From Deltaproteobacteria bacterium (lineage in GTDB: Bacteria > Bdellovibrionota_B > Oligoflexia > Oligoflexales > Bog-1112), in NCBI GenBank assembly GCA_016186945.1, contig JACPKR010000053.1, positions 1 to 64,000 on the forward strand: a stretch of 64,000 nt of DNA, written 5' to 3'. Below are positions 9,181 to 60,632 of this stretch, one piece after another. Within the stretch, counting starts at the first letter, position 1. Each line of letters begins with the position of its first letter. The position numbers and the translations under genes are program-made. A model generated the notes under the pieces. That model saw nothing but the letters and a program-made list of their open reading frames with translations, was not told where the DNA came from and made no database searches.

Positions 9181-9234
9181 GGATTTCATGGAGGAACCAG
9201 CTGCGCAGTTTCCTCCAAACCACCTCCTTGCCCC
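9181..9234 (+). repeat. Family A partial copy A2
   Basis: Core hairpin GGAGGAACC...TTTCCTCC and the adjoining CAAACCACCTCCTTGCCCC arm only; both termini are lost. It abuts the stop codon (9234-9236) of the minus-strand ATPase gene. Confidence 0.9.
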
Positions 9235-13793: not shown

Positions 13794-13800
13794 CTCGCTT

Positions 13801-13847
13801 TCTTGGAGGAACCAGCTGCGCAGTTTCCTCCCAACCACCTCCTTGCC
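13801..13847 (+). repeat. Family A partial copy A3
   Basis: Core hairpin and CAACCACCTCCTTGCC arm without termini, between convergent frr and the sigma54 activator gene. Confidence 0.88.
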
Positions 13848-20989: not shown

Positions 20990-21140
20990 TCCTCCCCTGG
21001 GATTTCTTGGAGGAAACAGCTGCGCAGTTTCCTCCAAACCACCTCCTTGCCCCAACCGGCTTACGCCTCCAAACCACTTCCTTGCCCCAACCGGCTTACG
21101 CCTCCAAACCACTTCCTTGCCCCAAACGGCTTACGCATTA
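20990..21140 (+). repeat. Family A copy A5 with internal expansion
   Basis: The core hairpin (21008-21035) is followed by three tandem copies of the right arm and the element ends in CTTACGCATTA. The left terminus and G-rich arm are missing. Directly downstream of tRNA-Ala. Confidence 0.88.
21031..21135 (+). repeat. Three perfect-register tandem repeats of 35 bp
   Basis: Units 21031-21065, 21066-21100 and 21101-21135, each beginning CCTCCAAACCAC and ending GGCTTACG, differing at one or two bases. They duplicate the right arm of family A copy A5. Confidence 0.95.
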
Positions 21141-21193
21141 TATAACAAGATATCAGGGTTACGTTCGCAAATCACTGCACGGGGTTATTTGAC

Positions 21194-23417: not shown

Positions 23418-23468
23418 GGATTTCTTGGAGGAACCAGCTGCGCAGTTTCCTCCAAACCACCTCCTTGC
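23418..23468 (+). repeat. Family A partial copy A6
   Basis: GGATTTCTTGG, core hairpin, and CAAACCACCTCCTTGC, without termini; between convergent genes. Confidence 0.88.
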
Positions 23469-28854: not shown

Positions 28855-28930
28855 GCATGGGGCAAGGAGGTGTTTTGGAGGAAACTGCGCAGATGGTTCC
28901 TCCATTTGCCACAAACAGCTTACGGATTAC
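28855..28930 (-). repeat. Family A shortened copy A8
   Basis: GGGGCAAGGAGGTG, core hairpin, then directly TTTGCCACAAACAGCTTACGGATTAC: the G-rich/C-rich arm is deleted and one terminus is degenerate. Confidence 0.85.
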
Positions 28931-32535: not shown

Positions 32536-32997
32536 ATGGGTAAGAGTAGCATTGAGGACAGAGTTGTTCCAGCCGTTTCATTGGTCGGTTTTTAGGATGA
32601 GTTGACAGCGTTTTTGAGAGCTGGAGCACGACGTATGTTGCAGGCAGCAATTGAAGCTGAAGTTGCTGAGTATATCCCGGCTAACCAAGATGAGCGTGAT
32701 CTTTCCGGTCATCGTTTAGTTGTTCGTAATGGGCATCACCCTGAGCGGTCGATTCAAACAGGTATAGGCGCGATAACCGTGAAAAAGCCCAAAGTCAATG
32801 ATAAGAGGGTCGATAAATTTGGTGAGTGCATCCACTTCCAAAGCAGCATCCTTCCACCGTACCTCAAGAGAACCAAGAGTATTGAGGATCTGGTCCCTTG
32901 GCTCTATTTGCGCGGTATTTCCACCGGCGATTTTCCCCATGCACGCGAAGCGTTGTTTGGCAAGAACGCCTCCGGCCTATCCTCACTAATTGCATAA
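32536..32997 (+). pseudogene. IS256/Mutator-family transposase, broken N-terminal fragment
   Basis: From ATG 32536 the frame reads MGKSSIEDRVV..., hits an in-frame TAG at 32593-32595, then continues as DELTAFLRAGARRMLQAAIEAE..., RNGHHPERSIQTGIGAITVKKPK and PWLYLRGISTGDFPHA, unmistakable IS256-type transposase N-terminus. It ends after ~150 codons, where ~400 are expected, so the DDE domain is missing. 32365-32535 is non-coding and probably the left end of the element; 32998-33077 may be another scrap. Confidence 0.85.
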
Positions 32998-36080: not shown

Positions 36081-37738
36081 AAAGAAAGCAACTCAGAGAT
36101 CGGTGCCGTAGTGACGTTTTCGATATCATCATCGTGGGCGGAGGCATCTCGGGTGCAGGCATAGCTCGAGAAGCTGCGTCGCGGGGATATAGTATCCTTC
36201 TTTTAGAAAGGAAAGATTTTGCATCGGGAGCGAGTTCTCGTTCGGGAAAATTAATTCACGGTGGCTTTCGTTATTTGAAGCACATGCGTTTCCGCTGGGT
36301 TCATATATCGTGTCGTGAACGTGACTTGTTATGTCAGAAATTGGCACCCGGTCTGGTCTTTCCCATCAAGTTTGTGCTTCCCTTCTTTCGCAACTCAAGA
36401 ACTCCAAAGTGGATTATGCGCGTCGGAACATTTTTATATTCCCTCTTACAGTGGCCAAGCCGCTTGGGGGGCTGCGAGGTTTGGTCGAAACATAGACTTG
36501 GCCGAGAGTTTCCGCAACTTGCTAAGGAAAATAACAAAGGTGCGGTCGTATTTTCCGATTGCCTAACCAATGACGCCCGCTTGACCTTAGAAGTGATTAA
36601 GACTGTGAGCTATCTTGGAGGACAGGTTTGTAATTATTCGGAAGTAAAAGCCATTCAAAAACACGATAATTTGTGGGAATTTTTGGTTTACGACAACCTG
36701 GAAGGTCTTACCTGGACGGTACGCTCACGAGTCGCCATCAATTCCGCAGGGCCGTGGGTAAATGAGATCTTAAAACGGGCAGATCGATCTGATCTTTTTC
36801 AGCTGAAGCATTCAAAAGGTGTGCATCTTGCGTTTTCTTCTTCCCGTATAAACATTCGAGATACTTTGGCGTTAGAGGTTCCACAGGATGGCCGTTTTGT
36901 GTATCTCATCCCGTTCCCGTCAGGGGTTTGGGTTGGTACAACCGACAATTTTTACGAAGGCGATCTGGATGCGGTTCGTGTCGTGCGTGAGGATGTGGAC
37001 TATTTGCTGGGTGTATTGAATCATTATTTTCCTGACGCACATCTCGGTATTGAAGATATTCTATCGGCTGAAGTTGGTATACGGCCTTTGATCGGAGGAG
37101 AGCTGGACGAAGCAAGTTCCCAAGCATCTCGCGACTGGGAAGTGAAAGTAAGTGACGACGGGTTTCTTTCCGTCACAGGCGGAAAATTGACGACCTTTCG
37201 TGCTATGGCGGTAGAGGCTCTGACCATACTTGGTAAGACCTTTCCCATGAAACTAAAGCCGTCTCGAACCTATCATTCCCTTTCTCCCCTTATTTTTGCG
37301 TTTGATCAAAAAGTTGGGCAGAAGGAATTTGAGCGCCTGGGCCTCGAATCTGAGATGGCGCAAGTCTTAAGCCAACGTTACGGAGCATTTGCCTCAAAGC
37401 TTATGAGAATATTGGAGAAAGATGCGAGCAAAAAAGAACGACTCATCGACACCCCTTGTCACATCTTGGCAGAACTCGATTACTTCATGTTGTATGAACA
37501 TGCTGAAACTTTGAGCGACATACTCATGCGTCGGACACAAATCTACATGTTCTCCCAGGATCATGGTCTTTCTATACTTGACCGCCTGGGGCAATACGTA
37601 GCCAATTTTAAAAACTGGGATGATGCTCGTCTGTCTGCTGAGACAAAAGCCTATCGCCAAGAATTGGAACGCCTGTCGATACCCTGCTTGGGGCAAGGAG
37701 GTGGTTTGGAGGAAACTGCGCAGCTGGTTCCTCCATAA
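36068..37738 (+). CDS. glpD: FAD-dependent glycerol-3-phosphate dehydrogenase homologue
   Basis: 556 residues. GGGISGAGIAREAASRG (~24-40) is the FAD dinucleotide fold; ASSRSGKLIHGGFRYL and SVTGGKLTTFRAMA are GlpD signatures. GlpD oxidises glycerol-3-phosphate to DHAP at the membrane. Overlap with the AGPS-like gene suggests it may instead interconvert alkyl-DHAP and alkyl-G3P, an inference. The last ~18 residues (from PCLGQGGG to QLVPP) are encoded by repeat A9, which also provides the stop. Confidence 0.9.
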   Translation: MEQLKRKQLRDRCRSDVFDIIIVGGGISGAGIAREAASRGYSILLLERKDFASGASSRSGKLIHGGFRYLKHMRFRWVHISCRERDLLCQKLAPGLVFPIKFVLPFFRNSRTPKWIMRVGTFLYSLLQWPSRLGGCEVWSKHRLGREFPQLAKENNKGAVVFSDCLTNDARLTLEVIKTVSYLGGQVCNYSEVKAIQKHDNLWEFLVYDNLEGLTWTVRSRVAINSAGPWVNEILKRADRSDLFQLKHSKGVHLAFSSSRINIRDTLALEVPQDGRFVYLIPFPSGVWVGTTDNFYEGDLDAVRVVREDVDYLLGVLNHYFPDAHLGIEDILSAEVGIRPLIGGELDEASSQASRDWEVKVSDDGFLSVTGGKLTTFRAMAVEALTILGKTFPMKLKPSRTYHSLSPLIFAFDQKVGQKEFERLGLESEMAQVLSQRYGAFASKLMRILEKDASKKERLIDTPCHILAELDYFMLYEHAETLSDILMRRTQIYMFSQDHGLSILDRLGQYVANFKNWDDARLSAETKAYRQELERLSIPCLGQGGGLEETAQLVPP

Positions 37739-37744
37739 TTCTTG
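37685..37744 (-). repeat. Family A partial copy A9, overlapping the glpD 3' end
   Basis: GCTTGGGGCAAGGAGGTGG, core hairpin, then TCCATAATTCTTGG; no complete terminus. It is read through by the glpD frame. Confidence 0.88.
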
Positions 37745-51246: not shown

Positions 51247-51340
51247 AGCAAGGAGGTGGTTTGGAGGAAACGTAATGCGTAAGCCGTTTAGGGCAAGGAG
51301 GTGGTTTGGAGGAAACTGCGCAGCTGGTTCCTCCAAGAAT
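51247..51340 (-). repeat. Family A nested copy A13
   Basis: A fragment GCAAGGAGGTGGTTTGGAGG..AAAC (51248-51271) stops inside the core where a second copy's terminus GTAATGCGTAAGCC begins at 51272 and continues through a complete core hairpin. This looks like one element inserted in, or recombined with, another. Confidence 0.85.
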
Positions 51341-51370
51341 TGCGCCAGGTATGGGTGCTTTCTATAGGGT

Positions 51371-59713: not shown

Positions 59714-59861
59714 TTTTTACCTCTTCTTTTCCCAATTGAAACAAATGAGTCGAGGTTTTGTTTCTCACAACTAAGGAGATGGGTCAACGAACAATTAATT
59801 TTAACCAGTTAATTTTATGGGAGTTTATCAATAAACGTCAATGCGGAAATTAACCTATTTT

Positions 59862-60006
59862 GTAATGCGTAAGCCACTTGGGGCAAATAGGGAGAGGGGG
59901 GTTTGGGGGGGCGAGTGAAGCATCGCCTCCCCCCGGAATTCATGGAGGAACCAGCTGCGCAGTTTCCTCCAAACCACCTCCTTGCCTCAAGTGGCTTACG
60001 CATTAC
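59862..60006 (+). mobile_element. Family A element, full-length copy A15 with perfect 8-bp target duplication
   Basis: 145 bp, GTAATGCGTAAGCC...GGCTTACGCATTAC, G-rich arm, core hairpin and CCTTGCCTC arm. CCTATTTT abuts both ends (59854-59861 and 60007-60014). The right terminus provides the TAA of the minus-strand GGDEF gene. Confidence 0.97.
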
Positions 60007-60632
60007 CCTATTTTAATGAAATCGAATTTGCTTTTATTGTCTTTCATAAACACCTTGTTCTTTCCATTTCGTTTGCTTTGGTACATGGCTTGGTCTGCTT
60101 GTGAGAGAAGTTCGTTCGCGTGAAGACCGTGGTAGGGGTAGATTGCGATTCCTATGGAGATGGAAATGCGGAGCTGTTTGCCATTGGCTGGGAAGGGGAA
60201 TTGGTCAACTGTGTCCCTGAGGCGTTGTGCGACGAGGCTTGCGCTGTCTTGATTTGTATCAGTAAGAAGAATGACGAACTCGTCTCCTCCATAGCGTATA
60301 ACAGAATCGTTCTCACGTACGGTCGCCAGGAGCAGAGCACCCAACTGTTTCAGGAGAGAGCTTCCCACGAGATGTCCGAAGTGGTCATTGATCCGCTTGA
60401 AGTCGTCTATATCAATGAACAGCAGGGCAAACTTGCTATCGTTTCGCAGGCAGCGTTTGATTTCTTTCCGGAGGCTTGCCTGAAGGTATCGGTAGTTGTA
60501 GAGGCCCGTCAATTCGTCCACGTGGAGGAGGGCTTGGCTGTCCTCAAGTGTTTTTGCCCAGTAAGCTTCTCTATCGACGATGATCCTGATGAGGGTGCGA
60601 AGCAGTTGTCGAAGTAGTGTGAGTTCGTTCAT
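60003..60632 (-). CDS. GGDEF diguanylate cyclase
   Basis: 209 residues, no membrane segment. DELTGLYNYRYL, FIDIDDFKRINDHFGH and GGDEF (115-119) are all canonical, and an inhibitory RxxD (106-109) sits five residues before GGDEF. It makes cyclic di-GMP and should be product-inhibited. Start overlaps the prepilin peptidase stop by 4 nt, so the pair is co-translated and could link type IV pilus/secretin maturation to c-di-GMP. The stop TAA is inside element A15. Confidence 0.93.
   Translation of the reverse strand: MNELTLLRQLLRTLIRIIVDREAYWAKTLEDSQALLHVDELTGLYNYRYLQASLRKEIKRCLRNDSKFALLFIDIDDFKRINDHFGHLVGSSLLKQLGALLLATVRENDSVIRYGGDEFVILLTDTNQDSASLVAQRLRDTVDQFPFPANGKQLRISISIGIAIYPYHGLHANELLSQADQAMYQSKRNGKNKVFMKDNKSKFDFIKIG

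What the first reader, a model, noticed from the sequence alone, without database searches (positions are those of the whole stretch)
59854..60014. Reconstructable empty site: element landed exactly on a stop codon without changing the protein
Removing A15 and one CCTATTTT gives the pre-insertion gene end ATA-GGT-TAA; with the element it reads ATA-GGG-TAA. Both encode ...KIG-stop. The insertion therefore replaced the native stop with the TAA in its own GTAA end and was invisible to the protein.
Basis: seen in the sequence. Interest (0 to 1): 0.6.

Follow-up and report, generated by a model that had tools for sequence, protein, structure and literature searches.

The report
Mobile repeat replaces gene's stop codon
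A 145-base mobile DNA repeat, present in very many copies in this bacterium, inserted one base before the stop codon of a signalling gene and its own first bases now serve as the stop, leaving the protein unchanged; this is real but is an ordinary, previously described side effect of such repeats.

Summary
A 145-bp MITE (59862-60006; ends GTAATGCG...CGCATTAC) lies between perfect 8-bp target duplications CCTATTTT (59854-59861, 60007-60014). The minus-strand GGDEF gene (60632-60003) ends AAA-ATA-GGG-TAA, with G-TAA from the element. Without the element and one duplication it reads AAA-ATA-GGT-TAA: the same protein, ...KIG-stop. Small correction: the insertion is one base upstream of the native stop, inside the last glycine codon; the native TAA survives, unused, at 59850-59852.

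It is not special. Genome-wide, 213 element ends match within one mismatch; 31 examined copies carry 8-9-bp duplications. In three more of these the element supplies the stop of a clear gene: rmlA (3 residues lost), cdsA (tail changed), miaB (24 residues lost). In four others the stop lies inside the duplicated target. The end GTAATGCGTAA has a stop in two of three frames within 11 bases. The empty site itself was not seen: the one same-genus contig breaks inside the gene. Pneumococcal BOX elements are a published precedent (36 genes). The mobilising enzyme is unknown; ends resemble IS66.

The parts
59862..60006 (.). 145-bp MITE (non-autonomous element), ends GTAATGCG...CGCATTAC
   Evidence: inverted repeats; 40 near-full copies scored in the genome at 92-97% identity, several more in the window
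59862..59891 (+). left terminal inverted repeat
   Evidence: I1, 90% complementary over 30 nt
59977..60006 (-). right terminal inverted repeat; its outermost G-TAA (60006-60003, minus strand) supplies the third base of the Gly codon and the stop codon
59854..59861 (.). target-site duplication copy 1, CCTATTTT
60007..60014 (.). target-site duplication copy 2, CCTATTTT (AAA ATA GG on the minus strand)
59850..59852 (-). native TAA stop codon, now separated from the gene by the element
   Evidence: sequence; reconstruction
60003..60632 (-). GGDEF-domain (diguanylate cyclase-like) gene, 209 aa, ends ...KIG-TAA
   Evidence: Pfam PF00990 E 7.7e-52; TIGR00254
60629..61516 (-). prepilin peptidase gene overlapping the GGDEF start; used as the marker to find positional orthologs
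   Evidence: PF06750, PF01478

Best explanation
A high-copy MITE transposed into the last codon of the GGDEF gene with an 8-bp staggered cut, duplicating AAAATAGG. The joint fell after base 2 of the last glycine codon, so the element's first four bases, GTAA, took the place of native TTAA: GGT-TAA became GGG-TAA, a silent change of the last codon with the stop at the same place. The insertion survived because it was harmless to the protein; the element's end (GTAATGCGTAA) holds a stop in two of three frames, so landings in the last codons of genes are often harmless. Shown: the duplication, the reconstruction, and other copies that do the same. Inferred: survival through lack of harm, and mobilisation in trans by a transposase not found in this genome (IS66-like ends; 8 or 9 bp duplications).
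For: Exact duplication and intact inverted repeats. Filled and reconstructed proteins identical. 213 matches to the first 14 bases of the end (up to 1 mismatch) against 0 for the reversed control pattern. Of 31 duplication-bearing copies, 24 have 8-bp and 6 have 9-bp duplications, one unclear. Four of the 31 supply the stop: for GGDEF, rmlA and miaB by G-TAA, for cdsA by the second TAA at +8; four have the stop within the duplicated bases (gene names). Over 111 exact GTAA ends, 8 coding-like frames enter the element; 7 stop within 11 nt, six at +1 and one at +8. Only 2 of 31 copies sit more than 30 bp inside a called gene, against 63% of random positions.
Against: No genome with the uninterrupted site was found; in the same-genus relative the neighbouring gene product is only 57% identical, too far for base-by-base comparison, and the tail after residue ~195 is not conserved. 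The homologs, including both positional orthologs, have an extra ~140-150 N-terminal residues, so this gene has changed at its other end. Gene calling for the site statistics was by a simple ORF and codon score and misses genes.
Confidence: 0.93

Rival explanations
1. The family is adapted to land at gene ends: the transposition machinery prefers sequences around stop codons, or the GTAATGCGTAA end has been selected as a stop cassette.
For: 13 of 29 duplication-bearing copies at tolerated sites lie within 20 bp of a gene 3' end against 4.2 expected, while 4 lie within 20 bp of a 5' end against 4.7; six of seven early stops use the +1 frame.
Against: The expectation is too low because the gene caller missed genes, so random 'tolerated' sites are over-counted; removal of harmful insertions alone gives a 3' bias. 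The duplications show only a weak A/T preference at inner positions, no stop-codon motif. GTAA ends occur in IS66 elements generally (PMC12888890).
Confidence: 0.05
2. The native protein was longer and the element truncated it; the KIG-stop end of the reconstructed site is a coincidence or a later mutation.
For: The C-terminal tail is too variable among homologs to fix the native end.
Against: The flank beyond the outer duplication reads T-TAA in frame; positional orthologs end +3 and -10 residues from this point.
Confidence: 0.03
3. The direct repeat is chance and the element is ancestral at this place.
For: About half of the full-length copies examined have no clear duplication.
Against: Perfect 8-bp repeat exactly at both ends of an element with perfectly paired outer ends, in a family with many such duplications; the family is not found in the same-genus genome G001.
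Confidence: 0.01

Closest known systems
BOX repeats of Streptococcus pneumoniae (PMC3049150)
   Same: Short high-copy repeats; in 36 genes the repeat encodes the stop codon at the extreme 3' end, with no strong evidence of truncation.
   Different: Different sequence and host; here the exact target duplication lets the pre-insertion end be written down base by base.
Bacterial MITEs in general (Correia/NEMIS, RUP, ERIC, YPAL; PMC2229807)
   Same: 100-200 bp, terminal inverted repeats, target duplications, strong hairpin, mainly intergenic, empty/filled site comparisons.
   Different: Unrelated sequence; ends GTAA rather than TA; 8-9 bp duplication.
MITEAba12 (PMC6382973)
   Same: MITE whose sequence ends a host gene; stops in all six frames.
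   Different: That case removed 398 residues from the protein; ends differ and the duplication is 9 bp.
IS66 family insertion sequences
   Same: GTAA outer ends; 8-bp duplications (an IS66 of the same order, L200, has GTAAGCG ends and AATTATTC duplications).
   Different: No IS66 transposase in this genome; a fifth of the MITE's duplications are 9 bp; no autonomous parent identified.

Membership tests
MITE (non-autonomous DNA transposon) | short, terminal inverted repeats, no transposase | tested here: met
   145 bp, 30-nt inverted repeats at 90%; no transposase-sized ORF
MITE (non-autonomous DNA transposon) | target-site duplication of constant or near-constant length | tested here: met
   8 bp (mostly) or 9 bp in 31 copies
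MITE (non-autonomous DNA transposon) | many similar copies in one genome | tested here: met
   40 scored near-full copies, 498 first-look candidates; 213 matches to the end
IS66 family (as source of the mobilising enzyme) | ends beginning GTAA | tested here: met
   IS66 ends GTAAGCG in PMC12888890 and L200
IS66 family (as source of the mobilising enzyme) | 8-bp target duplication | tested here: inconclusive
   about 80% are 8 bp, 6 of 31 are 9 bp
IS66 family (as source of the mobilising enzyme) | IS66 transposase (PF03050) present with matching inverted repeats | tested here: not met
   none in the 91%-complete own genome; IS66 elements of order relatives have other inner repeat sequence
IS256 family (alternative source) | 8 or 9 bp duplication plus Transposase_mut (PF00872) | tested here: inconclusive
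   duplication lengths fit (PMC3189936); only a 131-aa remnant in the genome, window 32602-32997; no matching end sequence near it

The most novel reading that the evidence does not exclude
The element's end GTAATGCGTAA works as a built-in stop cassette that makes insertion into gene 3' ends harmless, and this property, beyond passive filtering, helped the family reach hundreds of copies in a 2.7-Mb genome.
Probability: 0.1. Interest if true: 0.4.

Novelty: new member of a known kind. Interest (0 to 1): 0.2.

Why it matters
It is a clean, base-exact example of how a mobile repeat can take over a gene's stop codon without changing the protein, and shows why gene 3' ends collect such repeats. 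The phenomenon was already described for pneumococcal BOX elements; the repeat family itself did not turn up in the collections searched but is of a familiar type.

Tried and rejected
IS66 transposase in the own genome: none. IS256 transposase: a remnant only. The element in plasmids: none. The full element in 55 relatives: none; only its 40-48 bp core in G005 and G007. Empty site in the same-genus genome G001: contig ends inside the gene. The genome-contig scan for the GGDEF protein gave nothing above 49% identity. Terminator role: the hairpin is very strong (-81.6 kcal/mol, z -8.65), but this follows from the long inverted repeat, and no U-run follows it on the gene's strand. Two paper searches failed on query syntax.

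Full report
What is there. The window holds a 145-bp element at 59862-60006 with terminal inverted repeats of 30 nt at 90% complementarity, flanked on both sides by CCTATTTT. The minus-strand ORF 60632-60003 is a GGDEF-domain protein of 209 aa, whose start overlaps the end of a prepilin peptidase gene. Its last codons are AAA ATA GGG TAA; AAAATAGG is the duplicated target, and G-TAA is the outermost part of the element.

Reconstruction. Joining the flanks with one copy of the duplication in a script gives AAA ATA GGT TAA. The stop is at the same position and the last residue is glycine in both, so the protein is unchanged. Precisely, the element did not hit the stop codon; it entered between bases 2 and 3 of the last sense codon. 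The native TAA is still present at 59850-59852, now unused.

Is it a real insertion? The element family is abundant: 40 near-full copies were scored among 498 first-look candidates, and 213 sites match the first 14 bases of the end with at most one mismatch, against none for the reversed control. In 60 further stretches, the 30 first loci and the window, 31 distinct copies have target duplications: 24 of 8 bp (five of them with one mismatch), 6 of 9 bp, one unclear. The full element is absent from the same-genus genome G001 and the other relatives searched.

Is it unusual? No. Among those 31 copies the element supplies the stop for three further well-identified genes: rmlA (L007, 3 residues shorter), miaB (L176, 24 residues shorter; a 77-bp derivative whose duplication has one mismatch) and cdsA (L185, stop at the second TAA, tail ...FIH becoming ...FIRNA). 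In four more (L005, L168, L008, L014) the native stop lies within the duplicated bases, so it is simply copied. Across 111 element ends with an exact GTAA, eight coding-like frames enter the element, and seven stop within 11 bases: six at G-TAA and one at GTAATGCG-TAA (some of these lack a duplication or have modest coding scores). The end has stops in two of three frames, so this outcome is expected from its sequence.

Site distribution. Two of 31 copies lie more than 30 bp inside a called gene, against 63% of random positions; 13 lie within 20 bp of a gene 3' end (4.2 expected among tolerated positions) and 4 within 20 bp of a 5' end (4.7 expected). The expectation is biased low because the simple gene caller misses genes; I read this as removal of harmful insertions with perhaps some real 3' excess, not as targeting.

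Test against relatives. The gene lies next to the prepilin peptidase gene in G006 and G003 as well, and there it ends +3 and -10 residues from this point. Other homologs of 45-51% identity have variable tails ending close to the same place. G001, the same genus, has the locus but its contig ends inside the gene. So the inference stands but the empty site has not been observed.

Which machinery? GTAA ends and 8-bp duplications suggest IS66; an IS66 element in the same order has GTAAGCG ends and 8-bp duplications (L200), and published IS66 ends are GTAAGCG/GTAACCG (PMC12888890). But no IS66 transposase is found in this genome, and a fifth of the duplications are 9 bp, a mixture reported for IS256 (PMC3189936), of which only a remnant is present. 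The source is open.

Known before? Yes in kind: in S. pneumoniae 36 genes have their stop codon encoded by a BOX repeat, without strong evidence of truncation (PMC3049150). Bacterial MITEs with stops in several frames, and empty/filled comparisons, are standard (PMC2229807; PMC6382973).

Noticed in passing
window 9181-9232, 13800-13847, 23418-23468, 28858-28905, 37687-37741: Solo copies of the element's ~50-bp core (GGAGGAACCAGCTGCGCAGTTTCCTCCAAACCACCTCCTTGCC) without the terminal repeats; similar cores give over 100 first-look candidates each in two other genera of the family, G005 and G007, so the core may be an older, separate repeat captured by the MITE.
   Followed up: partly
window 32602-32997 (+): 131-aa IS256-type (Transposase_mut) remnant, the only such hit in the genome.
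   Followed up: partly
window 60003-60632 (-): This GGDEF protein lacks the ~140-150 N-terminal residues that its positional orthologs in G006 and G003 carry between the prepilin peptidase and the GGDEF domain.
   Followed up: no
window 20991-21141: A copy whose right end is repeated about three times in tandem (units like CCTCCAAACCACTTCCTTGCCCCAAACGGCTTACG).
   Followed up: no
window 51248-51344: One copy apparently inserted into another copy of the same family (nested).
   Followed up: no
L176:1523-1599, L171:1670-1746: 77-bp internally deleted derivatives with intact ends; the L176 one, at the end of miaB, has an 8-bp duplication with one mismatch, so short forms may also move.
   Followed up: partly
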